The notes under the pieces were generated by a model. That model was not told the DNA's origin and searched no databases. It saw only the letters and a list, made by a program, of their open reading frames with translations. A stretch of 64,000 nt of DNA from an uncultured Bacteroidales bacterium (GTDB lineage: Bacteria; Bacteroidota; Bacteroidia; Bacteroidales; F082), in contig CAMZAM010000002.1 in the NCBI GenBank assembly GCA_947304185.1, positions 1-64,000 of the forward strand, given 5' to 3'. This document shows, one piece after another, positions 262 to 38,540 of this stretch; positions within the stretch are counted from its first letter, which is position 1; each line of letters starts with the position of its first letter. Made by a program: the position numbers and the translations under genes.

Positions 262-333
262 TTTATAGTCGTCAATTTTAAAGGCCTTCAGCTTTCGCAG
301 AAAGGTGGCCAGCCGAAAAAATACGACTATAAA
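262..333 (+). repeat. Structured element E, copy 1
   Basis: Outer stem TTTATAGTCGT (262-272) pairs perfectly with ACGACTATAAA (323-333). The interior has a conserved core with AAGGCCTTCAGCTTT, a small hairpin CTTTC-GCA-GAAAG, then GGTGGCCAGCC and an A-run. The same core lies between different but self-complementary outer stems at 28892-28963 (opposite strand) and 38470-38540. This copy starts 2 nt past the mutS stop codon and is oriented antisense to mutS. It may be a REP-like element, a 3'-end stabiliser or a small RNA. Confidence 0.75.
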
Positions 334-334
334 A

Positions 335-2941
335 TCAATAGTTTTTCAGCATTTTTTTGATTTCGTTGAGCTTCATGAGAGCTTCAACCGGGGTCAGAGT
401 GTCGATGTTAATATTGAGAATATCGTCTTTGATTTGTAACAACAGCGGGTCGTCGAGCTGGATAAAGCTGAGTTGCATGTTATCCATCTGTTTGCTCTCC
501 TTGACAGCTTCGTCGAGGTTGTCGTGAGAATGCGATTTCTCAAGCATCGAGAGCAATGCGTCGGCTCTGTCGATGACTTTACGCGGCATTCCTGCCATGG
601 CAGCCACATGGATACCGAAACTGTGAGCACTTCCTCCTCTCTTGAGTTTTCTTAAAAACACCACCTTATTGCCGACTTCCTTCACCGATACGTGGTAGTT
701 TTTAATCCTGCTGAACGAGGCCTCCATCTCATTAAGTTCATGATAATGGGTGGCAAACATCACTTTCGCGCGCATCGTCGGGTGCTCGTGGAGGTATTCG
801 GTTATCGCCCATGCGATGCTGATGCCGTCGTAAGTGCTGGTGCCTCGACCGATCTCATCGAGTAAGATCAGACTTCTATTCGACACATTGTTCAAAATCG
901 AAGCCGTTTCATTCATCTCCACCATGAATGTTGACTCGCCAGATGAGATATTGTCGCTCGCTCCTACTCTAGTGAATATCTTATCCACAAGACCGATGCG
1001 CGCAGCCGACGCTGGCACGAAAGAGCCGATCTGCGCCATCAGAACGATGAGAGCCGTCTGACGTAGCAGTGCCGACTTACCCGACATATTCGGACCGGTA
1101 ATGATGATGATCTGTTGCTTTTCGCGATCGAGGTAGACGTCGTTGGAGATATAATCCTCACCCACCGGCATCATCTGCTCGATGACGGGATGCCTGCCTT
1201 CTTTAATATCAATGACATACGACTCGTCGACGGTCGGCATCACGTAGTTGTTGTTCAAAGCGATGTATCCGAAGTTGACCAGACAGTCGATCTTTCCGAC
1301 CAAGGCCGCATCGAGCTGGATTGGAGCCACGAACTCAGCAGTGGCGTTCACGAGCTCGGCATAGACACGCTCTTCGATGACTTGTATCTTCTCCTCAGCG
1401 CCAAGTATCTTCTGCTCATATTCCTTCAGCTCCTCCGTGATGTAACGCTCTGCATTGGCCAGCGTTTGCTTGCGAATCCATTCGGCCGGCACCTTGTCTT
1501 TGTGGGTGTTTGTCACCTCGAGATAATATCCGAAAACGTTGTTATAACCAATCTTCAGCGATGATATTCCCGTCGCCTCAGCCTCGCGTTTCTGGATATT
1601 AATTAGGTAATCTTTGCCCGAGCGCGAAAGATTGCGCAGATCATCAAGTTCCTCATTCACGCCCTCTGCTATGAAGTTGCCTTTCGAAGTCACTGCCGGC
1701 GCATCCTGACGAATCTCTTTTTTAATTCTATTTCTTATTGATTCACAAGGATTTAACTGTTCGGCAAATGTTTTCATCGAGGCATTGTCGCTATCCTTGC
1801 AAAGGTCGCGGATCACTTCAATCTGCTCTAGGGCATTCGAGACTTGAAGGAGCTCGCGAGGGTTTACCCGAGCGAGCGACACTTTGGAGATAAGTCGTTC
1901 AAGATCACCCACTTGACGGATAGCATCCTGGAATTTAGCTATGACATCTCTGTTTTTGTAAAAATAATCGACTACCTCGTATCTCGCCTGAATCTGCTCT
2001 TTGTTTTTCAACGGAAGCGAAATCCAGCGGCGCAGCAGACGCGAACCCATCGGCGAGACCGTCTTATCGATGACGTCAATCAGAGTTTTGGCATTAGGAT
2101 TCGGGGTATTGAGTAACTCAAGGTTACGAATAGTGAATTTGTCAAGCCATACAAACTGCCCCTGATCGATTCGCGAAAGCGAAGTGATATAGTCGATCTT
2201 ATCGTGCTGGGTTTCATGCAGATAATGTATCGCAGCGCCAGCAGCCACTATGCCTTTAGGAAAATCGTCGACTCCGAAACCTTTCAACGAAGTGGTATTG
2301 AAATGACGCGTCAGGATGTCATTGGCATAGTCATCGGTGAACACCCAGTCGTCGAAAACCGTTAAAAAATATTTATCGCTGAAAGTCTCAATAAATTCAC
2401 GGCGCTTGTTACGCTGGCAAAGCACCTCTGAAGGATTGAAACTCTGCAGAAGCTTATCAATGTACTCATTATTGCCTTGTGTGAGATAAAACTCGCCCGT
2501 CGAGACATCCAAAAACGCTATTCCGCTCTCATTTTTCTCGAGATGCACTGATGCCAGGAAATTGTTTTCCTTTTGAACCAAGACATTATCGTTATATGTG
2601 ATGCCTGGCGTCACCAGCTCGACCACGCCTCGTTTCACTATGCCTTTGGCCGTCTTCGGATCCTCAAGTTGTTCACACACAGCTACTTTCAGACCTGCGC
2701 GCACCAACTTCGGAAGATATGTATCGAGCGCATGATGCGGAAAGCCTGCCAACTCAACGCTCTGCGCCGTGGCACTGGAACGCTTCGTCAGAACGATACC
2801 CAAAATATCAGCCGCTTTCGCAGCGTCGTCCCCGTACGTCTCATAAAAATCGCCCACTCGGTAAAGCAGCATAGCTTCAGGGTATTTCGCCTTGAATGCA
2901 TAATACTGCCGCATTAATGGTGTATCGTTAGGATTTGCCAT
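335..2941 (-). CDS. mutS: DNA mismatch repair protein MutS
   Basis: The 868-residue product is the normal length for MutS1. It recognises mismatches and short loops and recruits MutL in an ATP-dependent way. The N-terminal mismatch-binding domain has the diagnostic Phe-x-Glu wedge (GDFYETY, F32/E34). Connector, lever and clamp regions follow, then the ABC-type ATPase with Walker A GPNMSGKS near residue 615 and the DEIGRGTST Walker B/D-loop region near 690. The C-terminus is a short helical tail. The gene is divergent from the TrmH-family gene, with a -7 box at 2986-2993. Copy 1 of element E lies immediately downstream. Confidence 0.98.
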
Positions 2942-2985
2942 GTTTTGATGAAAATAAAAACGAGATAATGATGCTTAATAATGCA

Positions 2986-3035
2986 CAAAATTACACTTTT
3001 TTCCTGAAACTGCGCCAAAAAAATTCATATTTTTG
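2986..3035. promoter_or_regulatory. Divergent promoters for mutS and the TrmH-family gene
   Basis: CAAAATTA at 2986-2993 reads TAATTTTG on the minus strand and serves mutS. TATTTTTG at 3028-3035 on the plus strand serves the methyltransferase. Both match TAnnTTTG. The plus-strand box predicts a transcript starting near 3042, only about 10 nt before the chosen start codon, consistent with a very short leader. Confidence 0.6.
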
Positions 3036-3051
3036 CAAAAATTTTTCACAT

Positions 3052-3585
3052 ATGCGCAAACTGACAATGCCGGAGTTAAATCGCTTAAATGTATCTGATT
3101 ATCATAGTGTTACGAAATTACCTGTGGTTATCGTGCTTGACAATGTGCGTTCGATGGAGAATGTGGGATCGTTTTTCAGGACTGCCGACGCTTTCCGCAT
3201 CGGAGCGATATATCTTTGCGGCATCACGGCCCGTCCGCCGCATCGCGAGATTCACAAAACGGCTCTTGGAGCTGATGAAAGTGTCGATTGGCAGTATTTC
3301 GCAACGACGGCAGAGGCCTGCGAGCACCTGAAAGAAAGCGGTTATCGTATTTTCGCGGTCGAACAGGTCGAAGGCAGTATCATGCTTGACGAGTTTGACA
3401 CTCCAGAGAAATCGGCATACATTTTCGGTAACGAAGTGGATGGTGTCGATGATGCGGTTTTAAGTTATTGCGAGCAGGCCGTTGAAATACCTCAAATGGG
3501 CACAAAACACTCGTTAAATGTGTCGGTTAGCGGAGGAATTTTGATGTATCACCTCTTCGCAAATCTGAAAAGCACATTAAAATAA
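3052..3585 (+). CDS. TrmH/SpoU-family RNA 2'-O-methyltransferase
   Basis: A 177-residue SPOUT-fold RNA ribose methyltransferase; these use SAM to methylate tRNA or rRNA. Motif 1 is VVIVLDNVRSMENVGSFFRT (N and R catalytic/binding residues), motif 2 is YIFGNEVDGV and motif 3 is IPQMGTKHSLNVSVS, the order expected for the trefoil-knot SAM site. An upstream in-frame ATG at 2935 lies before the promoter -7 box and would add an unrelated 39-residue extension; I start at MRKLTMPEL, immediately after the predicted transcription start. The exact RNA target cannot be read from the sequence. Confidence 0.88.
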   Translation: MRKLTMPELNRLNVSDYHSVTKLPVVIVLDNVRSMENVGSFFRTADAFRIGAIYLCGITARPPHREIHKTALGADESVDWQYFATTAEACEHLKESGYRIFAVEQVEGSIMLDEFDTPEKSAYIFGNEVDGVDDAVLSYCEQAVEIPQMGTKHSLNVSVSGGILMYHLFANLKSTLK

Positions 3586-3641
3586 GTCGATAACTAATTG
3601 AAAATCAGTAATTTAAATTATTTTTTATTTTTTTTAGTTTT

Positions 3642-3675
3642 TTTGAGATTTCAATCGGAAAATTTTCTAATTTTG
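3642..3675 (+). promoter_or_regulatory. Promoter of the OmpA-family gene
   Basis: TTTG at 3642-3645, a 22-nt spacer and TAATTTTG at 3668-3675 form a Bacteroidetes -33/-7 pair in a very AT-rich stretch. The leader to the ATG at 3724 is about 40 nt. Confidence 0.6.
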
Positions 3676-3723
3676 TAGCTTGAATTGAATAAGGAATACA
3701 AATAGTTCAAAAAATTAATAATT

Positions 3724-5073
3724 ATGACAAAAACTACATTCAAATCGTTGCTTTTCATCGCATTAGCAATTATCCCTATGGCCTTCTACGGTCAGGAAAA
3801 AACAGCCTCCAATAACTGGTTCGTCGGTATTGAAGGTGGTGCAACCCAGATGTTTGCTGATAACGCAGCATTCAAAATGGATCAGACCAGCTGGGATGCA
3901 GGTCTCTTCGGCGGTTACACACTTAAAAACGCTTTGTCATTCTACGTCGATCTCGGTTATGTGAACTTAAAGGGTAAGAATGGCGATTGGTTAAAAATTG
4001 ACGAATGCAACCTGTTCCAAGGAAACGTCAACGTTGGTTATAACGTTCTCCAGTTCTTCGGTTTCGATCCTGATCGCCGTTGGATTCTCATGCCACACAT
4101 TGGCTTGGGTGCTATCATGCACAGAACTAAGACCACATTTTCAAATGGTACCGTCATTCAAAACGGTTACGATAAGAAAGGTGCTATTCAGGGTCACGGT
4201 ATCGGTGGCAGAAAAGCTGTTTACACCAACAACTTCGGTCTTAAAATCGGTTACGCAATCTCACAGAAATTCGATATCGCTATTGACGTTGTCACAGTAA
4301 AGACAGATACAGAAGCTTTGGATAACTGGATACACGGTAAACATAGCGACTACTATGGCTATGCCAACCTCGCCCTTGCTTATAAGTTCGGCCGTAAGGA
4401 AGTACAACCTTGCCCAGCATGCCCAGAAGCTGAAGATTACAACTGCGACGTTTGCAAAGACGCTATCGAGCAGGCTGCAAAAGAAGCCGCAAAAGAAGCT
4501 GTTGAAGAGGCTATGAAAGACTACCAGCCAGCTCCAGCACAGGAAGCAGAAGCAGCAGCTACTCCAGCAGAAGAAGAGAACGCTGACAGCCCAGAGGCAA
4601 TGGCAAAGAACTGGGAAGAGAAAGACATTCACCTCTCATTCAAAGTTGGTAAAGCTGAAGTGAAAGACACTCAGGCCAACAAAGAGGAAGTGAAGAAAGT
4701 CAGCGAAGATATCGAAAACGGCAGAGAAGTCAGCAAGATTAAGACTGTCGGTTATGCTTCACCAGAGGGTAACGACGATGAAAACCAGAAACTCTCAGAA
4801 GATCGCGCAAAAGCAACAGCTGAATACATTGAGAAGAATCTCGGTGACCAGGCAGAAGGCATCAACTTCGAGTCAAAAGGTATGGGTTCAGACTGGGACG
4901 GTTTCTACAAAGCTCTTGCTGAGTCAGACATCAAAGCTAAAGACGAAATCGCAAAAGAAATCAAAAATTCTGAGGAGCCAACAGCAACTTTGAATCAGCT
5001 GAGAAATAAATATCCTGAGCTTGAAGAGATCCTCAACTCACTCAGAGTGACGAGAGTTTACATCAACAAGTAA
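3724..5073 (+). CDS. OmpA-family outer-membrane protein
   Basis: A 449-residue outer-membrane porin-like protein that likely tethers the outer membrane to peptidoglycan. It has a signal peptide ending MAFYGQ, then an N-terminal beta-barrel region (about 25-225) with alternating aromatic strands. A short Cys-rich linker (PCPACPEAEDYNCDVC, about 235-250) and an Ala/Glu/Pro-rich helical spacer follow. The C-terminal OmpA domain (about 300-449) contains the peptidoglycan-binding signature TVGYASPEG...LSEDRAKA. It is monocistronic, between its own promoter and a strong terminator. The choice of preferred codons suggests high expression. Confidence 0.9.
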   Translation: MTKTTFKSLLFIALAIIPMAFYGQEKTASNNWFVGIEGGATQMFADNAAFKMDQTSWDAGLFGGYTLKNALSFYVDLGYVNLKGKNGDWLKIDECNLFQGNVNVGYNVLQFFGFDPDRRWILMPHIGLGAIMHRTKTTFSNGTVIQNGYDKKGAIQGHGIGGRKAVYTNNFGLKIGYAISQKFDIAIDVVTVKTDTEALDNWIHGKHSDYYGYANLALAYKFGRKEVQPCPACPEAEDYNCDVCKDAIEQAAKEAAKEAVEEAMKDYQPAPAQEAEAAATPAEEENADSPEAMAKNWEEKDIHLSFKVGKAEVKDTQANKEEVKKVSEDIENGREVSKIKTVGYASPEGNDDENQKLSEDRAKATAEYIEKNLGDQAEGINFESKGMGSDWDGFYKALAESDIKAKDEIAKEIKNSEEPTATLNQLRNKYPELEEILNSLRVTRVYINK

Positions 5074-5091
5074 GAATTTAACTCTTAGAAA

Positions 5092-5128
5092 TAAAAAAGC
5101 CTCCGAGTTTTCGGGGGCTTTTTTATTT
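5092..5128. terminator. Intrinsic terminator after the OmpA gene
   Basis: AGCCTCCGA (5098-5106), loop GTTT, TCGGGGGCT (5111-5119) with one T-G pair, followed by a T-run. An A-run precedes the stem, so the structure also works for the convergent deoxynucleoside kinase gene on the minus strand. Confidence 0.9.
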
Positions 5129-5131
5129 TCA

Positions 5132-5770
5132 TTACAGGACCAAACGGTGGATTCCTACATCGTAAGGCTGGTTGATAGCCTCGACCACCTTATCGTAGTC
5201 TTTTCTATTCGCAACGAAATCGATGTTGTTAGTATCCAAAATCAAGATACGCATATCGTTCTGCTGCTTTATAAAATCGAAATAGCCCTGCTGCAGATGC
5301 TCGAGATACGAATCCTCAATCTTCTGCTCGTAATCGCGACCGCGCTTGCGGATGTTGTACTGCAGATGCTCGACATCAAGATACAGATACACCATCAGTT
5401 CAGGCTTGGGGATATTAGAGAAGATGATATTGAAGAATCTTGAAAATAGGTCGTATTCGTCGGGTTGCAGGTTTTCACGTGAGAAAATCAGCGATTTCGC
5501 TACATAATAGTCAGAGATGATGAAATCGTGGAAGAGGTCGAGGTTGCCGAGTTTATCCTTAAGCTGCTGGAATCGCAAGGCAAGGAAAGTCATCTCAACT
5601 TGGAAGGCATATTTGTCGGGATTCTCGTAAAACTTGGCAAGGAACGGATTTTTGTCAGGCTCAAACTCCTCAAGAATCAACTTTCCATTAAAGTCCTGGG
5701 AAATCTTCGTCGAGAGCGTCGTCTTACCGGCACCCATCGTACCTTCAATCGCCACGAAATTATATCTCAT
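5132..5770 (-). CDS. Deoxynucleoside kinase
   Basis: A 212-residue deoxyadenosine/deoxycytidine kinase-family enzyme that phosphorylates deoxynucleosides for salvage. The P-loop is IEGTMGAGKTTLS near residue 8. EEFEPDKNPF provides the substrate-site Glu region, and the DRS-like position reads FIISDYYVAKS. The lid region has RGRDYEQKI with basic residues. I use the ATG at 5770 rather than an upstream start: the shorter form begins MRYNFVAIEG as expected and leaves an 8-nt gap after folK. It lies in an operon behind folK. Exact base specificity is not determined. Confidence 0.88.
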   Translation of the reverse strand: MRYNFVAIEGTMGAGKTTLSTKISQDFNGKLILEEFEPDKNPFLAKFYENPDKYAFQVEMTFLALRFQQLKDKLGNLDLFHDFIISDYYVAKSLIFSRENLQPDEYDLFSRFFNIIFSNIPKPELMVYLYLDVEHLQYNIRKRGRDYEQKIEDSYLEHLQQGYFDFIKQQNDMRILILDTNNIDFVANRKDYDKVVEAINQPYDVGIHRLVL

Positions 5771-5778
5771 ATCACCTA

Positions 5779-6273: not shown

Positions 6274-6298
6274 GAAAAAAATTTTGCCTTACAAGATG

Positions 6299-6327
6299 CA
6301 AATATAATGAAAGAAATCGTATCTTTG
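6299..6327. promoter_or_regulatory. Divergent promoters for folK and sppA
   Basis: CAAATATA at 6299-6306 (minus-strand TATATTTG) faces folK. TATCTTTG at 6320-6327 faces sppA, 17 nt before its ATG. Both fit TAnnTTTG, so the two promoters are back to back within 30 bp. Confidence 0.6.
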
Positions 6328-6343
6328 AAAAAAATTTTAAACA

Positions 6344-8107: not shown

Positions 8108-8114
8108 CATTGCA

Positions 8115-11168: not shown

Positions 11169-11169
11169 C

Positions 11170-26024: not shown

Positions 26025-26070
26025 GGAGATTTCTCCATTCCATTTCATTTCAGTCGAAATGACGAAACTA
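26025..26070. repeat. REP-like palindromic element in the tnaA leader
   Basis: On the minus strand it reads as a GTCATTTCGACTGAAATG stem (26046-26061: CATTTC, loop, GAAATG) followed by GGAGAAATCTCC (26025-26036, itself a palindrome). The combination TCATTTCGA...GGAGAAATCTCC recalls dispersed extragenic palindromes I know from other Bacteroidetes genomes. Only one copy is in this window. Confidence 0.5.
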
Positions 26071-26198: not shown

Positions 26199-26222
26199 CA
26201 TCTGTTAAAAAAGATTGAAACA

Positions 26223-28877
26223 ATGAAACGGGCAGTTATTTTCAGGTTTTTGTTTTTGATGACCATAATTTTGTCGTCGATGGCGGCCATGGCGCAGTTT
26301 CCTCCTGGCGGAGGCGGCGGTTTTCCCGGTGGCAGACCTCCTGGAGGCAGACCTCCCGGACAACGCCCAGGTGGCGACCGACAGTGGAACCAACAGAACA
26401 TGCAGACACCTCAGGTGAAGCAGAAAAAGAAAGTTCGTGAAGGCGACACCTTCACTGTGGTGGGTATGCTGCTCGACGTGAAGAACAACGAACCTATCCC
26501 GTTTGTCAACCTTACTGTACTAGACTCAGTCGACAGCACCTTCGTGAAGGGCGGAGTCACCAACTACGAGGGTGTGTTTGAACTCGCCGGTATCCCGCAA
26601 GGCTCGTTTTTATTGCGCGTCACAGCGATAGGCTATGAAACTTATTGGCACCCGTTCACAGTGGAGAACAACACTGACCTTGGCATTTTAAAACTTCACG
26701 AAGGCGCCTTAACCCTTGACGCTGTGGTGGTTACAGCCGAGAAGCCTCTTTTCGCTATGGATGGTGAGAAGCTCATCTACAACGTTAGTGAGGATCCGTC
26801 GATACAGACTGGTACCACGGAGGATGCCCTTCAGAACGCTCCAGGCGTGGAGGTCGACGTGGAAGGCAATATCACGCTTCGAGGCGTGTCGAGTGTAGAG
26901 ATCTGGGTCAACGACAAGCCTTCAAAGCTTACCGACGAAAACCTCAAGACATACCTGCAGACGTTACCAGCCAACGCCATCGAGCGCATCGAGACGATAA
27001 CCAACCCATCGGCGAAATATGCCACCGACGCTGAGGCCGTCATCAACATCGTGACCTCTGCTCATGTCAAGAGTAACCAGTTTGTGAGTTTCGGCGTGAA
27101 CGGCTCGACACAGCCTTTCGTGTCGCCATGGGTGAGCTATATGTGGAAACGCGACCGTCTGAGCATCAATGTGTTTGCTTCTGGCCGTTTCAGCGACCGC
27201 GACAACACCAGCAACGGATGGGAACAGAAACGCCGTTATAACGACAGTCTTGATATGTATGAAGTCACATGGTCCGACACTACATATCAGAAAGACCAGA
27301 ACCGCAGCGTGAGTGCCAACATCTTCTTGGGTGTCGACTATGAAATCGACACGTCGAGCACCATCTCATTTGATGCTGGAGGTTTCTATAACTTCAACGG
27401 TAACAAGATGTTACGTTCGCAAGACCAGCGTTATTATTACTTCAACAATATGCCTTGCGACTCACTTCTTATCGACACTACCGACAGCAAGACCGATGCA
27501 AGCAACATCTTCGGGCATTTCGGCGCCGATTACACCAAGAAATTCGACAATTTCGGTCATAACTTACGTCTCAGTTTCAATTCGAGGATAATGCATAACT
27601 CGAATGAGCAGTGGTATAACAGGCTTTACGAGACATATAACTTCCTCAACGAGCACCGTTACATGCTTACTGACCAAAACATGCAGGGGGCTAGCCTCGA
27701 CGCACGTTACAACAGACCTTACAACCAGAATGGCGAGATGAGCTACGGCTTGCGTGTCGACTATAGTAACAACAACAACACCTACGACCGTTACAACGAC
27801 TCGCTTGGCGAGGTCATCGACGAGTTGCGCGCGTATAAGTTCAAAGGCACTTCCACCAACATCAGCGCCGACGTCAACTGGACACACCGTTGGGGCGGCT
27901 TCACCTTGAGCACAGGCCTCGGTGCCGGTCCAGAGATATCGACATACGACTACACCAGCGCCATGCCTTTTGCCGACAGCGGCACCTTGAATTACTGGGT
28001 ATTCCGTCCGTCGATACACCTCACCTATCGCACGCAGAGCATGCATAACCTCAAACTCAACTATTCGTTGAGGATGTCGAATCCTGATGAAGAGGATATC
28101 AGCAAGTTCCGCAGATATGGTGAAAACAACTATTCGACAGGTAATCCGGATGGTTTGAAGAGCTCATACACCCATAACATGGAGATGGGATGGCAGAAGT
28201 TCTTCGAGCGTTTTGGCAATATCGGATGGGAAGCTTACGGACGTTTGAGTTCCAACGAAATCAGCTCGCTCACCGACTCAGAGTACGACCAGTATCTCGA
28301 CCGCATCGTGAGCTATTCTATGCCATATAACATGGGAAGTTCATGGCGTTACGGTACTTCGGTCAACATGACATACCGTCCGACCGGATTCTTCAACGTG
28401 AGGATGTATGCCAACCTCTACAACTACGGCTATCACATGGAATACGACCGCACCGATGAGTTCGGAAACGTGAGACACACTGTCAACGAAAACGACAAAT
28501 GGTCGTGGAGCGTGCGTGTCAACGCATGGACTAAGATCTTCAATCAATATCAGCTAACGATGGCTGTGGGTTACACCTCACCTACCATCAGCTTGGCCGC
28601 CGAACGCAAGGCACGTTACTGGCTCAACATCGGAGCTCGTAGCGACTTCTTCAACCGTAAGATGTCGGTGTTTGTCAACGTGCAGGACCTCTTCAACTGG
28701 GGAGCGACAATCGGATCCGGCTCGAAGAACACCAACCCGTATTATCTCACCGACAACACCAACAAGATGGTCAACAGCCGTTACATCTCTGTCGGCGTGA
28801 CGTTCCGTTTTGGTAAGATGGAGCTTGAGCAGAGGGCTAAAGAGGGAGACGGAGAAAGCGGAGATAGTCTGGAATAG
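26223..28877 (+). CDS. TonB-dependent receptor-like outer-membrane beta-barrel protein
   Basis: An 884-residue outer-membrane protein of the OMP_b-brl_3 / TonB-receptor-like type. The signal peptide ends MAAMAQ. An unusual Pro/Gly-rich stretch follows (FPPGGGGGFPGG, about 22-50). A carboxypeptidase-regulatory-like beta-sandwich comes next (about 70-160: VGMLLDVKNNEPIPFVNL...GVTNYEGVFEL), then a plug domain (about 180-280: TTEDALQNAPGVEVD, LRGVSSVEIWVNDKP, IERIETITNPSAKY). The rest is barrel strands ending near VGVTFRFGKMELEQRA. No SusD-like partner is adjacent, so the ligand is unknown. The upstream in-frame ATG at 26172 lies before the promoter; I start at 26223. Confidence 0.9.
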   Translation: MKRAVIFRFLFLMTIILSSMAAMAQFPPGGGGGFPGGRPPGGRPPGQRPGGDRQWNQQNMQTPQVKQKKKVREGDTFTVVGMLLDVKNNEPIPFVNLTVLDSVDSTFVKGGVTNYEGVFELAGIPQGSFLLRVTAIGYETYWHPFTVENNTDLGILKLHEGALTLDAVVVTAEKPLFAMDGEKLIYNVSEDPSIQTGTTEDALQNAPGVEVDVEGNITLRGVSSVEIWVNDKPSKLTDENLKTYLQTLPANAIERIETITNPSAKYATDAEAVINIVTSAHVKSNQFVSFGVNGSTQPFVSPWVSYMWKRDRLSINVFASGRFSDRDNTSNGWEQKRRYNDSLDMYEVTWSDTTYQKDQNRSVSANIFLGVDYEIDTSSTISFDAGGFYNFNGNKMLRSQDQRYYYFNNMPCDSLLIDTTDSKTDASNIFGHFGADYTKKFDNFGHNLRLSFNSRIMHNSNEQWYNRLYETYNFLNEHRYMLTDQNMQGASLDARYNRPYNQNGEMSYGLRVDYSNNNNTYDRYNDSLGEVIDELRAYKFKGTSTNISADVNWTHRWGGFTLSTGLGAGPEISTYDYTSAMPFADSGTLNYWVFRPSIHLTYRTQSMHNLKLNYSLRMSNPDEEDISKFRRYGENNYSTGNPDGLKSSYTHNMEMGWQKFFERFGNIGWEAYGRLSSNEISSLTDSEYDQYLDRIVSYSMPYNMGSSWRYGTSVNMTYRPTGFFNVRMYANLYNYGYHMEYDRTDEFGNVRHTVNENDKWSWSVRVNAWTKIFNQYQLTMAVGYTSPTISLAAERKARYWLNIGARSDFFNRKMSVFVNVQDLFNWGATIGSGSKNTNPYYLTDNTNKMVNSRYISVGVTFRFGKMELEQRAKEGDGESGDSLE

Positions 28878-28891
28878 TATAATAACTAGAG

Positions 28892-28963
28892 TTTTCAGTC
28901 GTCATTTTTTGGCTGGTCACCTTTCTTCGAAAGCTGAAGTCCTTTAAAAATGACGACTGAAAA
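28892..28963 (-). repeat. Structured element E, copy 2
   Basis: Outer stem TTTTCAGTCGTCA (28892-28904) pairs with TGACGACTGAAAA (28951-28963), extended by a T5/A5 pair. On the minus strand the core reads AAAGGACTTCAGCTTT, hairpin CTTTC-GAA-GAAAG, GGTGACCAGCC and an A-run, matching copies 1 and 3. It fills the gap between two convergent genes, 4 nt past the Na/Pi gene stop, and could also terminate transcription from either side. Confidence 0.75.
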
Positions 28964-28967
28964 TTTT

Positions 28968-30629
28968 TTATTTTCCGAATCGTGCTTCGACGACGTTGAT
29001 GACGTAGTCGCCGAGTTTCTCGCAGTCGGTGATGAGGTCGGAGAACATAGTGCCGACAGCGTAGTCGTATTTCTGTTCGTTGATGTTACGGATATTTTCG
29101 TTTTTCAGCATCTGACGCATGGCGTCGATCTCGTTTTCGATGCGGAACGACTCGTTGATGTCGTGTTCGGCGCGACGTCCTGTCATGATGGCGTTCATCT
29201 GTGTAAGGGCGTCATCGCAGAGTTTCATCATCTCATGCAGGCTCTTGTTTTGCCAAGCGATGAATTTCTTTCCCGATTCTATCTTACGTTGCAGGGTGCG
29301 TGCGATGTTATAGCATGCGTCGCCGACGCTCTCCAGTTCGCTGATCTCTCGCAGCATCTGACGAATCTTGATCTTCGTCTCATCGCTGAGATGGTCGTAG
29401 CTCACCTGTTCGATATATTTTGCTATCTCTATCTCGATCTGGTCAGAGACCTGTTCCTTATTCTCGATAATGGCAAACAACTCTGCGAATTTGGTCTCGT
29501 TTTTCTCATCTAAGAGCTGGCGTGACTTGGCGAACATCTCCTGCACGAAGACGCCGAACGAAGCCGTCTCTTTCTCGGCCTGGAGCACAGCGATTTCAGG
29601 CGTTTGCACGAGACCGTTGCCGATATACTGCAGACGGGCGACTTCTTTCTCCATCTCTTTCTTGTCTTTGATGGCCCAGCACACTATCTTCTCGATCTGT
29701 GGCACGAATCCGATGAGGATAGCGGTGTTTGTGATATTGAAACACGTATGGAACATCGCGAGCACGACGCTCAGCTTCGTCGGGTCGGACACTCCTTGTT
29801 CGTAGTCGACGAAGGAGCATACCATGTCGATGAATGGATGCAGCACGAAGAGCATCCATAGCACTCCGAAGACGTTGAAGAACATGTGAGCGAAGGCGGC
29901 GCGCCTGGCTTGTGTTGAGGCTGTCAGGGCCGCGAGGTTCGACGTCACTGTCGTGCCGATGTTCTCACCCATCACCAGTGCGATACCTTGATAGATGGGG
30001 AGCGCGCCGCTTGAGCACAGTATCATGGTGATAGCCATCACTGCAGCCGACGACTGCACGCACATCGTGAGGACACTGCCTATCAGCAGGAACAACAGCG
30101 TAGTCCAGATACTGTCGGGGTCGAACGATGCGAAGAATCCCAGCACTGCCTCGTTCTCACCGAGGTTCATCTGCACGCCGGTGGCACGCAGGGTACCGAG
30201 GCCGAGGAACATAAAAGCGAGGCCGAAGAGGAACTCTCCGAATGTGGCGCGACGTTTCTTGTAGATGAGTATCATCGCGATGATGAAGACGGGCCACACC
30301 AGGTCGGTGACGTTGAATGAGAAGCCTGCCGACATGATCCAAGCGGTGAGCGTAGTGCCGATGTTAGCACCCATGATCACCGAGATAGCCTGTCCGAGCG
30401 TGAGCAGCGTGGCGTTGACAAACGACACTGTCATCACCGTAGTGGCGGTGGAACTCTGCACAGCCGCCGTGACGAGGACGCCGGTGAGCATGCCAGTGAA
30501 GCGGTTGGTCGTCATCTTACCCAAGACATGACGCAACTGCGGTCCTGCAAGCTTCTGCAGCGACTCACTCATCATCTTCATACCGAAGACGAGAAGTCCT
30601 AACGAACCTAATATCTTAAAAGCAAGCAT
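28968..30629 (-). CDS. Na+/phosphate cotransporter family protein with PhoU-like C-terminal domain
   Basis: A 553-residue inner-membrane protein of the NptA/YjbB type. Two inverted transport repeats carry the diagnostic QSS motifs (TAAVQSSTATT and MCVQSSAAVM), with GANIGTT and GENIGTT loops. About eight membrane segments occupy residues 1-330. A cytosolic PhoU-like helical domain (about 345-553) follows. The probable role is sodium-coupled phosphate uptake or efflux. It is convergent with the TonB-receptor-like gene, with element E copy 2 between them, and follows the M16 peptidase gene after 60 nt containing a perfect palindrome. Confidence 0.9.
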   Translation of the reverse strand: MLAFKILGSLGLLVFGMKMMSESLQKLAGPQLRHVLGKMTTNRFTGMLTGVLVTAAVQSSTATTVMTVSFVNATLLTLGQAISVIMGANIGTTLTAWIMSAGFSFNVTDLVWPVFIIAMILIYKKRRATFGEFLFGLAFMFLGLGTLRATGVQMNLGENEAVLGFFASFDPDSIWTTLLFLLIGSVLTMCVQSSAAVMAITMILCSSGALPIYQGIALVMGENIGTTVTSNLAALTASTQARRAAFAHMFFNVFGVLWMLFVLHPFIDMVCSFVDYEQGVSDPTKLSVVLAMFHTCFNITNTAILIGFVPQIEKIVCWAIKDKKEMEKEVARLQYIGNGLVQTPEIAVLQAEKETASFGVFVQEMFAKSRQLLDEKNETKFAELFAIIENKEQVSDQIEIEIAKYIEQVSYDHLSDETKIKIRQMLREISELESVGDACYNIARTLQRKIESGKKFIAWQNKSLHEMMKLCDDALTQMNAIMTGRRAEHDINESFRIENEIDAMRQMLKNENIRNINEQKYDYAVGTMFSDLITDCEKLGDYVINVVEARFGK

Positions 30630-30650
30630 ATAATTATATAATGTGTAAAC

Positions 30651-30682: not shown

Positions 30683-30689
30683 TACTATT

Positions 30690-33611: not shown

Positions 33612-33638
33612 TTTGTTATAATTTTGAATTATTTATCG

Positions 33639-35042
33639 TTATTTTACGAATCTTCCTTGTTTTTTATTACCCTTAACATCTTTAGCCTCAACAAGATACG
33701 TGCCTGACGGCAGGTCGCAGACATCAATCTTCACCTTCGATGATGCTGTGACCGTCATCTTCTTAACGAGATGGCCTTGATTGTCATAAATCTTTATTTT
33801 TCTGATGTTTTCGGCTTCTATCATGATGAATGATGAGGCTGGAACGGGATAAATCTTCAATGTGTTTTCGGCATTATTATCCGAGATAGCTTGGTATCCG
33901 TAGGTATCGTTGCCATCAGTGAGCCATTCGATGCTAAAGTTGTAGAATGCGGTGGAATAGTTTCCCATCTCGCCGCTAGGATTCTCCTCGACGTAGAGGC
34001 CAATGGTGCCGTCAGGGAGGACGCAGAGCGATGAATATGCCGAGCTATATGGCACGATGGTCTTGCTCACCGGCCATGTCTCGCCTTCGTCGTAGCTGAC
34101 ATACACTGTAACGTCGGTACGTTGGGTACCTTTAGGCACAGAATGCAGCAGACGGTTTTTGTTATGTCCTTGATTTACAGATGTATAGCGTATCAAGTCG
34201 CCATTGCATGCCGGTGCAGTGATGTCGTTCCACGACGATGTGCTTGGCCGCCATGTCTCACCGCCGTTTGTGGAGATATTATACCAGCGTTTGCCATTAT
34301 GGCGGATGCTCATGAGGATACGGCCGTCGACGAGCTCAGTGACCTTTGCCTCGTCGCCGCCTGTTGAGGCGCGCCCTGACACCTGCCAGGTGAGGCCGTT
34401 GTCGTCGGAATACACAGCATGGTTGCTCAACGACTGTGCCGATCCTTCGCGTATAGCGGCTACGAACATGATACGTCCTGTCGAGGTGAGCAGTCCATTG
34501 CCTGACCCGAAGAATGAGGCGCGCCATGTTTGATGCTCAGGGATGATACAGTCGTCGCCAAAGATGAAACGTGTAATATCTTCAGGCTCCGTCCATGTCT
34601 GGCCGTTGTCGTAACTATATGATTTATATGATCTTATCGGTTCACTGGGGGTTGAGTTCCAGAGACCTGGTCCGCCTACGAAGACTGCGATGAGTCCGTT
34701 GTCGTCGTTGCTCCATGCCAGTGCGCAGTCGCCGAAGCCGTGGTTGACACCGGTGCCTTGTGCTATAGTGTAGGGTTCGCTCCAGGTGAGGCCGCCGTCG
34801 GTGCTTCGGTTGCAAACGATATCGATATCTTGTGGAAGGTCTCCTTCGTTGTATTTACGTTTGTCGGTGACCGCCACTATGCTTCCGTCTTTAGCGGTGA
34901 TGACAGCTGGGATGCGGTAGTTTGTCGAGCCGTAGTCGCCTGGATGGTATAGCTCGGTTCTAGTGAAGATAGTGTCGTTTTGTGCGTTAGCAAAAAACGC
35001 CGAAACTGTAACGATCACAAGAAGAACGACTTTCTTCATCAT
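33639..35042 (-). CDS. Exo-alpha-sialidase (GH33) with T9SS C-terminal domain
   Basis: A 467-residue secreted sialidase that releases terminal sialic acids from glycoconjugates such as mucin. The signal peptide ends FFANAQ. The FRIP-type motif YRIPAV lies near residue 43. Five Asp-box repeats are visible (STDGGLTW, SYDNGQTW, SDDNGLTW, STNGGETW, SYDEGETW), giving the six-bladed propeller. The last ~75 residues form a T9SS sorting domain (IYPVPASSFIMIEAENIRKI...LPSGTYLVEAK...GRFVK). It leads a two-gene unit with the M16 peptidase. No sialic-acid catabolic genes are in the window. Confidence 0.93.
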   Translation of the reverse strand: MMKKVVLLVIVTVSAFFANAQNDTIFTRTELYHPGDYGSTNYRIPAVITAKDGSIVAVTDKRKYNEGDLPQDIDIVCNRSTDGGLTWSEPYTIAQGTGVNHGFGDCALAWSNDDNGLIAVFVGGPGLWNSTPSEPIRSYKSYSYDNGQTWTEPEDITRFIFGDDCIIPEHQTWRASFFGSGNGLLTSTGRIMFVAAIREGSAQSLSNHAVYSDDNGLTWQVSGRASTGGDEAKVTELVDGRILMSIRHNGKRWYNISTNGGETWRPSTSSWNDITAPACNGDLIRYTSVNQGHNKNRLLHSVPKGTQRTDVTVYVSYDEGETWPVSKTIVPYSSAYSSLCVLPDGTIGLYVEENPSGEMGNYSTAFYNFSIEWLTDGNDTYGYQAISDNNAENTLKIYPVPASSFIMIEAENIRKIKIYDNQGHLVKKMTVTASSKVKIDVCDLPSGTYLVEAKDVKGNKKQGRFVK

Positions 35043-35064
35043 AGAATATTATATTTTCAAGGTG

Positions 35065-35072
35065 CAAAGTTA
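35065..35072 (-). promoter_or_regulatory. -7 box of the sialidase-M16 unit
   Basis: CAAAGTTA reads TAACTTTG on the minus strand, about 23 nt before the sialidase start codon. Confidence 0.55.
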
Positions 35073-35162
35073 TAAATTTTTCTTAAAACTTGCAATTCTA
35101 AAAAACTTTTTATAATTTTACTATGATTTAACAAAAAACAACACTCATAAAAGTTAAATATC

Positions 35163-35395
35163 ATGAAAACGTGTAACAAGTTTTTTGCCGAATTGTTCGG
35201 CACATTCGTTTTGGTTTTCGGAGGTTGCGGTACAGCACTCTTCGGACATGTTGGTTTTCTCGGAGTAGCTATCGCTTTCGGCTTGACAGTGGTAGCAATG
35301 GCTTATGGCATCGGGCACATCTCGTCGGTGCTTGTCTCGCCGGACTGGTCTACAAATGCATCACAGGATGCTGCTGCAAAAAGTGCGAGAAATAA
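35163..35395 (+). pseudogene. aqpZ: Aquaporin Z remnant with internal deletion and frameshift
   Basis: The first ~50 codons encode a clear AqpZ N-terminus ([40 protein letters not shown]). Right after the GHIS that should continue GGHFNPAV, the frame is lost. In another frame the next ~22 codons read [15 protein letters not shown]...KKCEK and stop at 35395, which looks like an aquaporin C-terminus. Both NPA motifs and most of the six-helix channel are missing, roughly 150 codons. The in-frame 85-residue ORF to 35420 is therefore not a functional channel. Confidence 0.85.
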
Positions 35396-35475
35396 GACAA
35401 GATTAACTGGATTGATTTAAGACAGGATCAACAAGATTAACTGGATTAACTTAATACAGGATTAACTGGATAAGA
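35396..35475. repeat. Degenerate tandem repeat with GATTAACTGGAT units
   Basis: Three copies of GATTAACTGGAT occur (35401, 35436, 35460), interleaved with ACAGGATCAACAA / ACAGGATTAA. The related phrase ACAGGATTAACAAGATTA occurs once more at 38453, next to element E copy 3. It may be a mobile-repeat remnant linked to the aquaporin deletion. Confidence 0.5.
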
Positions 35476-35486
35476 AGAGTTAATCG

Positions 35487-35522
35487 TGTGGGGGCGAATG
35501 ATTATTCGCCCCCACATTTTTA
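35487..35522. terminator. 13-bp GC-rich hairpin beside the EEP gene
   Basis: TGTGGGGGCGAAT (35487-35499), loop GATT, ATTCGCCCCCACA (35504-35516), followed on the plus strand by TTTTT. For the minus-strand EEP gene it lies directly after the stop codon but has no following U-tract. A GGGGCGAATnATTATTCGCCCC palindrome of this kind is familiar as a dispersed extragenic repeat. Confidence 0.6.
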
Positions 35523-36443
35523 CATTTTTATCTTTACAAAAACAGGATAGTGGTCGGAAGGATTGCGTCGCGTTGTGTTGCTAAACCAGATTTCCTGAGG
35601 AGCGTCAGAGGCTTTTTCAGAGGCGGCTGACGTCTCGTTTTCAGTCCAGTAGCTGTTGGTGAGAACGCCGTAAGCCTCAACTGCGATTGCCGGCGACACG
35701 AAGACGTGGTCGATGCGGCTGGTGGTAAAATATTCCGTCTTAAACGCGTTGAAGGTACCGTTTTCAGCGAACCGGATGCGGGCAGCGTCGTAGGAATCCT
35801 CCAGCAACCCTGAATTTATGAAAATGGTATATATTTCGTTGGTTTGGTCGACGTTAAAGTCGCCGGTGAGGATTACCGAAGCGTCTTTAGCTATCTCTTG
35901 GATGCGAGCCACCACCAGTTTCGCTGCCTCACGACGAGCCACGATGCCTACGTGGTCCATGTGAAGGTTAAAGAAATAGAACGTGGTGCGGTCTTTTTTC
36001 TTCTTGGCGTTGACTTGGAACTTGCCCCAGGTGCAGATTCGGATGCAGGCAGCGTCCCAGCCGAGACCAGGTTTTTCAGGCGTCTCGCTGAGCCAGAAAT
36101 TGCCACTGTCGAGGAGTGTGAGCTGGTCTTTTTTATAAAAGATAGCTTCGTGTTCTCCTCCCCTTTCGCCGTCGTCGCGACCTATGCCGATGTAGTCGTA
36201 GCCGTCGAGGCCTCTCTTCAAATCCTGAAGCTGACCATAAAGCACTTCCTGCGTGCCGAAAATCAACGGATTCATGAAGTTGACCTGGTCGCAGATCACC
36301 TGACAGCGCTTTGTCCAGACGTTACCGTTGAGGCTGTCGTTACGATTCTTATAACGGATATTATATGAGCCGACAAGCATCTCCTGAGCGCTAATTCCAA
36401 GCGCCAAAACGCTGAAGATGGCAATAAATAAAAGCTTTTTCAT
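35520..36443 (-). CDS. Exported endonuclease/exonuclease/phosphatase (EEP) family protein
   Basis: A 307-residue exported hydrolase. The signal peptide ends ALGISAQ. The EEP fold is shown by GSYNIRYKN (Asn), FGTQEVLYGQL (metal-binding Glu), NLHMDHVGIVARREAA, LTGDFNVDQTNE (Asp/Asn) and a C-terminal SDHYPVFVKI (catalytic Asp-His). Substrates in this superfamily range from DNA to phospholipids and sugar phosphates, so only the phosphodiesterase/phosphatase chemistry can be stated. It follows the peroxiredoxin gene by 2 nt, implying one transcript. Confidence 0.88.
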   Translation of the reverse strand: MKKLLFIAIFSVLALGISAQEMLVGSYNIRYKNRNDSLNGNVWTKRCQVICDQVNFMNPLIFGTQEVLYGQLQDLKRGLDGYDYIGIGRDDGERGGEHEAIFYKKDQLTLLDSGNFWLSETPEKPGLGWDAACIRICTWGKFQVNAKKKKDRTTFYFFNLHMDHVGIVARREAAKLVVARIQEIAKDASVILTGDFNVDQTNEIYTIFINSGLLEDSYDAARIRFAENGTFNAFKTEYFTTSRIDHVFVSPAIAVEAYGVLTNSYWTENETSAASEKASDAPQEIWFSNTTRRNPSDHYPVFVKIKM

Positions 36444-36445
36444 GA

Positions 36446-36889
36446 TTACAAAATCTGTGAGCTATGATTTTTAGTGTCGACTTTGCCGATGGCATCAATG
36501 ATGACACCTTTTTCATCTATGACGTAAGTTGTTCTAAGGGTTCCTTCGGTCACTTTACCATACATTTTCTTCTCGCCCCAAGCCTCGTAGGCTTTGAGTA
36601 TGGTGAGGTCGGTGTCGGCAATAAGATGGAACGGCAGATCATATTTTGCGATGAACTTCTGGTGTGAGGCGGCGCTGTCGCGGCTCACTCCTAACACATT
36701 GTAACCCAATGCAATGAAGCGGTTATAATTGTCGCGGAGGTCGCAGGCTTCTGCGGTGCAACCCGGGGTGCTATCCTTTGGATAGAAATACAAAACAAGC
36801 TTCTTTCCAGCGAAATCGCTCAGCTTCACGACGTTTCCGTTTTCATCGATGCCCTCAAAATAAGGGGCTTTTTGACCTGGTTGTAACAT
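36446..36889 (-). CDS. bcp: Thioredoxin-dependent thiol peroxidase (BCP/PrxQ peroxiredoxin)
   Basis: A 147-residue peroxiredoxin that reduces hydroperoxides. The catalytic motif is YPKDSTPGCTAEACDLRD, with the peroxidatic Cys at PGCT and the resolving Cys five residues later, the atypical 2-Cys PrxQ arrangement. GVSRDSAASHQKF, GTLRTTYVIDEKG and the C-terminal sequence are also typical. I use the ATG at 36889 (MLQPGQKAP); the longer form begins at a TTG. It is first of a two-gene unit with the EEP gene. Confidence 0.94.
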   Translation of the reverse strand: MLQPGQKAPYFEGIDENGNVVKLSDFAGKKLVLYFYPKDSTPGCTAEACDLRDNYNRFIALGYNVLGVSRDSAASHQKFIAKYDLPFHLIADTDLTILKAYEAWGEKKMYGKVTEGTLRTTYVIDEKGVIIDAIGKVDTKNHSSQIL

Positions 36890-36928
36890 ATCTGACAATT
36901 TTTATTATTTGCAAAAATACATATTAAT

Positions 36929-37537
36929 TTAAAATCTTTCAAAAATCTCTTTTATTTCAGTTTCATTATCAATCATTTGGCGCAATTTCTCCAATCTAGC
37001 GGCATTTGGTGATTCCGGGAACCAAAGCTTCAAGTATCCGTTGCGGCCGTATTTCCCATGAAGGTGCTGCATCATGCGGTCGTATTGCTGTTCTTTTGAG
37101 AGCTCAGGATAGTGATCGAGGCCATATTGAATAGTACGCTTTACTATGGTCTCGGAGTCGATGAAGCGGTCGGCTTCAGCAACGATGCGGCCGTAGATGG
37201 TGCGAGGCTCGTGTTTCGCTGAGGCGCGATGGTCTTCAGCGGCATTGGCCATGGTCTGAATCTGCTCCTCTGTGAACCACTTCCGAAGGTTCTCATCGGC
37301 TTTTATAATCTGCGCCGACACCTCATGATGCCGTTCCCTGCCCTCGCAAAGACCTGTATCGTGATATGCTGCGATGACATAAACCATATCAGGATTAACG
37401 TCGAGATGCTCTGCAATCTCCAGGCTTTGCTTGATAACCATATTGACATGGTCACGCTGATGTGCCGCGTCGAAGTTGTCGTAACGAGGAATGACTTCCT
37501 TTTCAATATACGATACTATGTCAGGATTAATTTTCAT
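36929..37537 (-). CDS. HD-domain hydrolase
   Basis: A 202-residue protein with an HD-superfamily metal-dependent phosphohydrolase domain: DAAHQRDHVNMVIKQ (first His), VIAAYHDTGL (HD dyad) and ERHHEVSAQII, with a distal acidic residue in AEADRFID. There is no signal peptide or membrane segment. The natural substrate, probably a nucleotide or small phosphate ester, is unknown. I use the ATG about 50 nt inside the annotated frame, because the upstream start is a TTG lying in the divergent promoter region. It is divergent from the SDR gene. Confidence 0.8.
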   Translation of the reverse strand: MKINPDIVSYIEKEVIPRYDNFDAAHQRDHVNMVIKQSLEIAEHLDVNPDMVYVIAAYHDTGLCEGRERHHEVSAQIIKADENLRKWFTEEQIQTMANAAEDHRASAKHEPRTIYGRIVAEADRFIDSETIVKRTIQYGLDHYPELSKEQQYDRMMQHLHGKYGRNGYLKLWFPESPNAARLEKLRQMIDNETEIKEIFERF

Positions 37538-37541
37538 ATGA

Positions 37542-37598
37542 CAAAAGTACAAAAAATCACAAATTAAAAGTTCATTTTTCAAAAAATCCGTATTTTTG
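37542..37598. promoter_or_regulatory. Divergent promoters for the HD and SDR genes
   Basis: CAAAAGTA (minus-strand TACTTTTG, about 37542-37549) faces the HD gene and TATTTTTG at 37591-37598 faces the SDR gene. Both leave extremely short leaders (about 5 and 8 nt between box and ATG), so one or both transcripts may be nearly leaderless. Confidence 0.5.
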
Positions 37599-37605
37599 TA
37601 CCATT

Positions 37606-38442
37606 ATGAAAAACATCAAAAAAGTAATCCTCATCACTGGAGGAAGTTCGGGAATCGGGTACGACTCGGCGATAGCGCTGGCGAAGCAAGGTCATAAGGT
37701 TTATGCTGCGGCGAGACGTGTTGAAATGATGGAGCCGCTCAAGGAATACGGCATTGTGCCGCTCAGCCTCGACGTGACTGACGACAACTCTATGCAAGGA
37801 TGCGTAAAATCAGTACTCGACGCTGAAGGCAGGATCGACGTGCTTGTTAACAACGCCGGCTACGGCTACTTCGGCGCCATCGAAAACGTGACGATGAAAG
37901 AAGCCCGTAAACAGTTGGAAGTCAACGTGTTTGGAATGGCAAGAATGTGCCAATTAGTACTCCCAACGATGCGCGAACAGCATTCTGGACGAATCATCAA
38001 CATAGCATCAATAGCGGGAAGAGCCACAGTGTATTTCGGAGGCTGGTACAACGTCTCAAAATACGCTGTCGAGACCTTCAGCGATGCACTTCGCATGGAG
38101 ACGAAGCCATTCGGCATTCAAGTCGTGCTGATCGAGCCGAGTGCCATCAAGACAAACTGGGGCATCATAGCCGCCGACAACCTCGAGGCATCGTCACGCG
38201 GCACGGTTTACGAAGAACGAGCCATCAACGAGGCAAACAACATGCACAAGGCATATCGCTCAAACCTCTTCTCTAAGCCGGCAGTGGTGACACGCGCCAT
38301 CTGCAAAGCAGTGAATTGCCGCCGTCCTCGCACACGATATTGCATCGGAAGAGGCGGAAAGATGATAGTATTCTTGCATAGCATCCTTCCGACAAGATGG
38401 TGGGACAGAATTAACAGGATAATGACAAAAAAAGTTCTTTAA
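37606..38442 (+). CDS. Short-chain dehydrogenase/reductase
   Basis: A 278-residue classical SDR. Features are the Rossmann glycine motif TGGSSGIG near residue 12, cofactor-selecting AAARRVE, NNAGYG and the catalytic Ser-Tyr-Lys set IASIAG...WYNVSKYA. The Arg after the second strand suggests NADP(H). The C-terminal extension is basic and hydrophobic (MIVFLHSILPTRWW). The substrate is unknown. It is a single gene followed by the repeat phrase ACAGGATTAACAAG and element E copy 3. Confidence 0.9.
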   Translation: MKNIKKVILITGGSSGIGYDSAIALAKQGHKVYAAARRVEMMEPLKEYGIVPLSLDVTDDNSMQGCVKSVLDAEGRIDVLVNNAGYGYFGAIENVTMKEARKQLEVNVFGMARMCQLVLPTMREQHSGRIINIASIAGRATVYFGGWYNVSKYAVETFSDALRMETKPFGIQVVLIEPSAIKTNWGIIAADNLEASSRGTVYEERAINEANNMHKAYRSNLFSKPAVVTRAICKAVNCRRPRTRYCIGRGGKMIVFLHSILPTRWWDRINRIMTKKVL

Positions 38443-38469
38443 ATCTATACAGGATTAACAAGATTACAC

Positions 38470-38540
38470 TCTTTAATCATCGATTTTGAAGGCCTTCAGC
38501 TTTTGTATAAAGGTGGCAACCGAAAAATGATGATTAAAGA
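38470..38540 (+). repeat. Structured element E, copy 3
   Basis: Outer stem TCTTTAATCATC (38470-38481) pairs with GATGATTAAAGA (38529-38540). The core has GAAGGCCTTCAGCTTT, hairpin CTTT..AAAG, GGTGGCAACCG and an A-run, matching copies 1 and 2. Relative to copies 1 and 2 the outer stem has AATCAT for AGTCGT, with matching changes on the other arm, so pairing rather than sequence is conserved. It lies between the SDR and M13 genes. Confidence 0.75.

What the first reader, a model, noticed from the sequence alone, without database searches (positions are those of the whole stretch)
262..38540. A three-copy structured element with covarying outer stem (262-333, 28892-28963, 38470-38540)
Three intergenic ~70-nt elements share the core AAGGnCTTCAGCTTT - small hairpin - AAAGGTGnC..CC - A-run, but their 11-13 bp outer stems differ (AGTCGT versus AATCAT) with matching changes on the opposite arm. 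Conserved core plus compensatory stem changes means structure is selected. Two copies abut stop codons (mutS in antisense orientation, Na/Pi gene in sense) and one follows the SDR gene. It could be a REP-like element with a RAYT-type mobiliser elsewhere, a 3'-end module or a small RNA. I do not know a named family with this core.
Basis: seen in the sequence. Interest (0 to 1): 0.8.

Follow-up and report, generated by a model that had tools for sequence, protein, structure and literature searches.

The report
Scattered hairpin repeat of unknown mobiliser
The three elements belong to a family of short DNA pieces that can fold into a long hairpin, scattered between the genes of one small group of Bacteroidales, often right after a gene's end; their shape is largely kept while their letters change, and what spreads them is not known.

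Summary
The three copies are real and fold far better than shuffles; one more full copy lies elsewhere in the genome (4 in 2.08 Mb). A covariance model finds the element in 20 of 99 genomes of the genus, in 1 of 16 genera of the family, and in 3 of 393 genomes sampled from the order (all the same genus), with 1 to about 30 matches per carrier. On 93 distinct copies 96.5% of pairs are standard (shuffled 84.0%) and 22 of 27 pairs show changes on both sides, while certain unpaired letters are nearly invariant. Of 98 copies, 56 have a stop codon within 25 nt (19% of control positions). Copies occur in both orientations, in arrays, and are present or absent at orthologous sites. This is a dispersed, REP/BIME-like hairpin. 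It lacks GTAG and CGTC end tags, attC ends and target duplications above control. RAYT genes do not track it: Y1_Tnp is in 9 of 20 carriers against 61 of 79 non-carriers, and in none of the three richest. I infer a non-autonomous element recognised as a folded strand by an unidentified enzyme, then tolerated as a 3'-end hairpin. Mobiliser and RNA function are not shown. Template switching could explain part of the covariation.

The parts
260..334 (+). element copy 1: outer stem TTTATAGTCGT/ACGACTATAAA, core, CGCAG loop; directly after the mutS stop codon, antisense to mutS
   Evidence: element also after mutS in 8 more of 30 loci read, empty site in G055
28891..28965 (-). element copy 2: between two convergent genes (TonB-plug/OMP gene stop at 28877, Na/Pi cotransporter stop at 28968), sense to the Na/Pi gene; no bulged A in this copy
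   Evidence: orthologous junction lacks the element in G138, G049, G094, G106, G122, G055 (five of them)
38468..38541 (+). element copy 3: between the short-chain dehydrogenase stop (38442) and an M13 peptidase gene (starts 38608)
   Evidence: the same gap holds none in G138, two elements in G122 and G049, three in G141
335..2941 (-). mutS, neighbour of copy 1
   Evidence: Pfam MutS domains I-V
28968..30629 (-). Na/Pi cotransporter, neighbour of copy 2
   Evidence: PF02690 E 6e-56
38608..40665 (+). M13 peptidase gene, downstream of copy 3 (called pepO here, a name of mine)
   Evidence: PF05649 and PF01431

Best explanation
The three elements are copies of a clade-restricted, non-autonomous, REP/BIME-like dispersed DNA hairpin of about 74 nt. 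One strand folds into a nearly continuous hairpin: an outer stem (P1); usually a bulged A and 3 more pairs; a junction that is most often a tandem GA/GA or fully paired; a middle stem (P2); a CTT-against-CA internal loop; and an inner stem (P3) closed by a GNA triloop. Stems drift while pairing is kept; certain unpaired letters do not. Shown: family, structure, covariation, stop-proximal location, presence/absence at orthologous sites, arrays, lack of RAYT linkage. Inferred: an enzyme recognises the folded single strand by its irregularities and copies it into gaps between genes, where insertions just after stop codons are tolerated and can then act as 3'-end hairpins of the transcripts on either side.
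For: Covariation on 93 distinct copies: 96.5% of cells paired against 84.0% shuffled; 352 cells with changes on both sides against 90.8 (sd 17.7) shuffled and 18-36 when slid. Some unpaired positions are nearly invariant (A17 .99, C28 1.0, T29 .99, T30 1.0, C53 .97, A54 1.0) while paired columns average .826. GNA triloop in 85 of 93 with the middle letter free, 78 of them closed by C-G; tandem GA/GA in 61 of 93 against 25% with shuffled partners. 1 to 30 matches per genome in 20 of 99 genus genomes. Empty orthologous sites. Stop codon within 25 nt: 56 of 98 against 1955 of 10327 control positions; convergent gaps 41% against 25%. Tandem arrays with spacing of about 80-91 nt.
Against: No mobilising enzyme or autonomous parent was found: of 59 matches to the 5' arm in 6 genomes, 11 had no model hit by my reading of the lists, and the 7 of these that I read show, by eye, no matching 3' arm. 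Flanking direct repeats do not exceed control. Only 4 copies in the own genome. No replication-strand preference, as IS200/IS605-type mobilisation might give: neighbouring copies 12 same, 19 opposite in a hand-picked subset. At 66 orthologous pairs the element is more conserved than its flanks in only 37, and several sites carry swapped variants. Window copies 1 and 2 depart from the bulge of the consensus, and other unpaired columns (21-24, 33, 40, 48, 51, 60-62) vary.
Confidence: 0.6

Rival explanations
1. An RNA 3'-end module: the hairpin is kept because, at the end of messages, it blocks exonucleases or helps termination for one or both convergent genes; dispersal is incidental.
For: 56 of 98 copies within 25 nt of a stop, convergent gaps enriched. 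After pepO, of 16 loci read, six have the element (G049, G070, G083, G120, G136, G141) and six have an ordinary hairpin with T-run at about that place (G000, G074, G111, G122, G125, G138) (by eye; four of the latter aligned). At some sites the element is 98.6-100% identical while flanks are 77-89% (L059/L074/L075, L072/L114, L128/L130/L131).
Against: In G070, G083 and G120 a further hairpin with T-run follows the element after pepO (by eye). No U-tract: TTTT within 10 nt in 5 of 37 copies; no orientation preference, 20 sense and 17 antisense. About 20% of copies lie in divergent gaps. 79 of 99 genomes of the genus had no match.
Confidence: 0.22
2. The paired changes are made by replication template switching in quasipalindromes, not by selection; the element is a self-correcting hairpin relic.
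For: The mechanism is described (PMC8794818, abstract). G-U pairs are scarce (54 of 2490 cells) beside double changes. Some sites switch whole variants. Window copy 2 pairs straight through the bulge, as correction would produce.
Against: Correction should erase the bulge and the internal loop, yet A17 is kept in 92 of 93 and C28, T30 and A54 in all that have a letter there. No inverted (TNC) loop among the 93. At orthologous pairs uncorrected single changes are common: 91 broken and 60 G-U against 166 compensated.
Confidence: 0.1
3. A classical REP mobilised by a RAYT (Y1 HUH transposase).
For: Imperfect palindrome with irregularities, arrays, extragenic location, as in E. coli REPs, whose bulge TnpA-REP needs (PMC8266576, passages); the own genome has two Y1_Tnp genes.
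Against: GTAG within 8 nt in 1 of 97 copies on the 5' side, CTAC in 1 of 97 on the 3' side; no CGTC tag. Y1_Tnp is rarer among carriers and absent from the three richest genomes, some of which are incomplete. No element in 9 of the 11 Y1_Tnp loci of carriers; the other two were not read.
Confidence: 0.04
4. A small RNA gene, riboswitch or ribozyme.
For: Strongly structured, with constant unpaired letters.
Against: No Rfam match of the element at gathering score in the window; around copy 1 only hits far below gathering at relaxed threshold. Copies sit beside different genes, mostly near stop codons, in both orientations and in arrays.
Confidence: 0.03

Closest known systems
REP / BIME elements with RAYT (TnpA-REP), GTAG type
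   Same: extragenic imperfect palindromes with an internal irregularity, dispersed and arrayed
   Different: 74 nt rather than 20-40 (size from the abstract of PMC3733652); three stems with two internal irregularities; no GTAG foot; no RAYT linkage; 1-30 matches per genome
CGTC-tagged REPs (PMC3733652, passages seen)
   Same: palindromic repeats without a dedicated transposase, reported also in Bacteroidetes
   Different: those have 8-9 bp stems, 4-5 nt loops and a CGTC tag; here the hairpin is far longer and CGTC occurs inside the outer stem of some copies, not as an end tag
Integron attC sites
   Same: long imperfect hairpin in which stems vary and extrahelical bases are constant (recalled)
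   Different: no RYYYAAC/GTTRRRY ends in 97 copies (motif recalled)
MITEs
   Same: short, palindromic, polymorphic insertions with no gene of their own
   Different: no target duplication above control; no parent transposon seen; both arms change together
Extraordinarily stable DNA GNA mini-hairpins
   Same: GNA loop with free N, mostly closed by C-G (PMC4686876, passage)
   Different: known as a physical motif, not as a repeat family; RNA can also form such loops (recalled)
Palindromic candidate structured RNAs of human microbiomes (PMC8040213, passages)
   Same: 250 of 3161 candidates are palindromic, some mostly in Bacteroidetes
   Different: cannot tell: the candidate list is in supplements that were not available here

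Membership tests
REP (GTAG type) | GTAG tetranucleotide at the foot of the hairpin | tested here: not met
   GTAG within 8 nt on the 5' side in 1 of 97 copies, CTAC on the 3' side in 1 of 97
REP (GTAG type) | associated RAYT gene | tested here: not met
   Y1_Tnp in 9 of 20 element-bearing and 61 of 79 other genomes; none in G070, G141, G136; no element in 9 of 11 such loci of carriers
REP (GTAG type) | dispersed extragenic palindromes, often arrayed | tested here: met
CGTC REP | CGTC tag at one end, 8-9 bp stem | tested here: not met
   CGTC within 8 nt on the 5' side in 2 of 97, GACG on the 3' side in 0 of 97; stems longer
MITE | target-site duplication | tested here: not met
   direct repeats at the ends of 97 copies about equal control; one site shows a 3-bp TCA
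MITE | parent transposon with the same ends | tested here: inconclusive
   none among 7 of 11 unmatched arm places in six genomes
Integron attC | RYYYAAC...GTTRRRY ends | tested here: not met
   0 of 97
Integron attC | integron integrase in the genome | not tested
   no search spent on it
Intrinsic terminator | hairpin followed by a U-tract | tested here: not met
   TTTT in 5 of 37 tails, T fraction 0.33
Structured RNA family of Rfam 15 | match above gathering score | tested here: not met
   only a tRNA in the window; relaxed hits around copy 1 are far below gathering
Structure-conserved element in general | covariation beyond shuffled and slid controls | tested here: met
   the alignment was fitted to the structure and rows are related, both of which favour it

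The most novel reading that the evidence does not exclude
A family of mobile hairpins that spreads as folded single-stranded DNA using an enzyme unlike RAYT. It is recognised through its bulge, a CTT/CA internal loop, tandem GA pairs and a GNA mini-hairpin loop, and is repeatedly taken up in this clade as the 3'-end hairpin of genes, in places instead of an ordinary terminator.
Probability: 0.17. Interest if true: 0.75.

Novelty: new variant of a known kind. Interest (0 to 1): 0.45.

Why it matters
REP elements of the GTAG type are usually explained by RAYTs. Here is a well-defined, clade-restricted family with strong structural constraint and no RAYT link, whose presence and copy number vary between related species. 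That makes two questions directly testable on natural copies: what else can mobilise palindromic repeats, and whether compensatory changes in DNA hairpins come from selection or from template switching. It also warns against reading covariation alone as proof of an RNA.

Tried and rejected
RAYT linkage was tested and not supported. Rfam families: none. Spread on viruses or plasmids: two exact patterns in viral contigs gave 0, and blastn of one copy against phages and plasmids gave no match; these reach near-consensus copies only. An autonomous parent with the same ends was sought by a 12-letter arm pattern in six genomes: 59 matches, 11 without a model hit by my reading of the lists, 7 of the 11 read by eye, none with a matching 3' arm. 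attC ends, GTAG/CGTC tags and target duplications were tested and not met. A replication-strand preference was not seen (hand-picked subset of the places). Matches in Vibrio albus (L040) and an Erysipelotrichales MAG (L042) were set aside as chance: by eye their flanks form no outer stem. A strand signal in G-U versus A-C cells (54 against 30) is too weak to decide RNA or DNA. Literature on this repeat: searches (18 of 18 listed; 15 of 87 listed; 10 of 11; 10 of 4,681; core strings; 10 of 23 listed) showed no description of it in the listings; only the open-licence PMC library was searched, and supplements could not be read. Searches were for template switching and GNA loops.

On re-checking, the odds of the 3'-end rival and of the novel case were lowered slightly, because three of the six genomes with the element after pepO also have a hairpin with T-run behind it.
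Full report
Observation. The three elements are present as described. Each folds far better than its shuffles, as RNA and as DNA. The exact core pattern occurs three times in the 2.08-Mb genome, all in this window. A covariance model (R1, 12 seed copies, these three among them) adds one more full copy at C4:26807-26881; the four weaker rows of that search are the same places read on the other strand, as expected for a palindrome.

Distribution. With R1, 20 of 99 genomes of the genus match at E <= 1e-3. With R2, built from 107 aligned matches, the counts at E <= 1e-6 in those 20 genomes run from 1 to 30 (G070 30, G141 22, G136 15, own 4; a few opposite-strand duplicates are inside). In the family, 20 of 173 genomes match, all in one of 16 genera. 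In a sample of the order, 3 of 393 match, all in the same genus. The large scans scored only 12-49 candidates per genome, so weak copies may be missed. The carriers are mostly the genomes closest to ours by MutS: 18 of the 19 best MutS matches carry it (not G078), plus G138 (partial MutS) and G072 (82% MutS identity, one copy, one flank 98% identical to G141 over 118 nt). Of 10 exact core matches in named genomes, 8 are in MAGs labelled Bacteroidales, including goat omasum and water buffalo abomasum samples; the two others I set aside as chance.

Anatomy. From 93 distinct rows of A3: P1 modelled as 14 pairs; an A after it (92 of 93), bulged in the model; three further pairs; a junction; P2 (GGC/GCC, AGC/GCT, AAT/ATT and others); CTT facing CA (C28, T30 and A54 constant wherever a letter is present); P3; and a loop. 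The junction is a tandem GA/GA in 61 of 93 copies (25% with shuffled partners), fully paired in 18 and other in 14. The loop is a GNA triloop in 85 of 93, closed by C-G in 78, the middle letter being A, C, T or G. Other unpaired columns vary. In the window itself copy 3 has a one-nt bulge, copy 1 a two-nt one, and copy 2 pairs straight through. GNA loops are known from extraordinarily stable DNA mini-hairpins (PMC4686876, passage), which suggests, but does not prove, that the folded DNA strand matters.

Covariation. Given the structure, 96.5% of 2490 cells are standard pairs (shuffled mean 84.0%), 22 of 27 pairs have changes on both sides, and there are 352 such cells (shuffled 90.8, slid versions 18-36). 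The alignment was fitted to the structure and the rows are related, so the numbers lean that way; the gap to the slid controls is nevertheless very large. G-U cells number 54 and A-C cells 30.

Is it selection? At 17 orthologous sites (66 pairs of copies) the element is more conserved than its flanks in 37 pairs. Some sites are striking: 100% against 77.5% (L059/L074), 100% against 85.5% (L072/L114). Others carry a different variant at the same place (63-79% while flanks are 73-89%). Across the 66 pairs I count 166 compensated, 60 G-U, 91 broken single and 15 broken double changes; pairs share history and are not independent. Template switching in replication can create compensatory changes (PMC8794818, abstract). 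Against it as the whole story, the A at the bulge and the internal loop, which it would erase, are among the most constant letters, and no inverted loop occurs in the 93. Copy 2 of the window, without a bulge, is what it would make.

Location. In 98 copies with both neighbouring ORFs in hand (the window's own three left out, ORFs called mechanically), 56 have a stop codon within 25 nt against 1955 of 10327 control positions in the same loci. 41% lie in convergent gaps (control 25%) and 20% in divergent gaps (control 35%). Orientation to the nearest stop is even (20 sense, 17 antisense), and 5 of 37 tails hold TTTT. Control positions overlap one another and are not independent.

Presence and absence. 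After mutS the element stands at or within about 30 nt of the stop in 9 of 30 loci read; G122, G094, G106, G111 and G049 have another palindrome there and G055 has neither. Of eight other genomes with a close Na/Pi homologue, six lack window copy 2 at the same junction (G138, G049, G094, G106, G122, G055) and two have a different neighbour (G083, G078). The gap holding copy 3 has none in G138, two in G122 and G049, three in G141. After pepO, of 16 loci, six have the element; six have an ordinary hairpin with T-run (G000, G074, G111, G122, G125, G138); the other four have neither or a hairpin without T-run. In G070, G083 and G120 a hairpin with T-run also follows the element; in G049, G136 and G141 I see none (by eye). 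A 3-bp repeat (TCA) borders copy 1 against the empty G055 site, but across 97 copies flanking repeats about equal control.

Mobiliser. Y1_Tnp is found in 70 of 99 genus genomes: 9 of 20 with the element, 61 of 79 without, and none of the three richest; many are incomplete MAGs. Nine of the eleven Y1_Tnp loci in element-bearing genomes were scanned with R2: no element. No GTAG or CGTC foot and no attC ends beyond stray cases. No parent transposon was seen among the arm matches read. No match in viral contigs, phages or plasmids at the sensitivity used.

Reading. It works like a REP/BIME: a dispersed folded palindrome, tolerated after stop codons, sometimes arrayed, perhaps standing in for a terminator. 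It is not a member of the GTAG or CGTC REP families by the features tested. How it moves is unknown; recognition of a folded single strand is inferred from the constant irregularities, by analogy with TnpA-REP, which needs the bulge of E. coli REPs (PMC8266576, passages). I rate it a new variant of a known kind.

Noticed in passing
window 26028-26065; L153, L154, L156, L159, L162 directly after mutS: Another extragenic palindrome (GTCATTTCGA...TCGAAATGAC type) occupies the same post-mutS place in five related genomes; a short piece like it lies in the window upstream of the TonB-plug/OMP gene.
   Followed up: partly
L160, L161, L158, L167 after mutS; L034 beside a copy: Degenerate heptamer-like tandem repeats (such as GTTTAGA or AGTCTTT units) fill gaps in these genomes; the element's outer stem itself reads as two such heptads (AGTCNTT AGTCRTC).
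   Followed up: no
L145 (four copies), L076 and L140 (three each), L036: Tandem arrays of different element subtypes with a spacing of about 80-91 nt.
   Followed up: partly
L064 (G072:C36:762-834): A more distant genome of the genus holds one copy, one of whose flanks is 98% identical to G141 over 118 nt: horizontal transfer or contamination.
   Followed up: no
L124, L131, L134, L136 (3230-3302), L066, L137: The neighbouring ORF's stop codon lies 9 nt inside the element, on the TAG of the outer stem, so the element seems to supply the stop.
   Followed up: no
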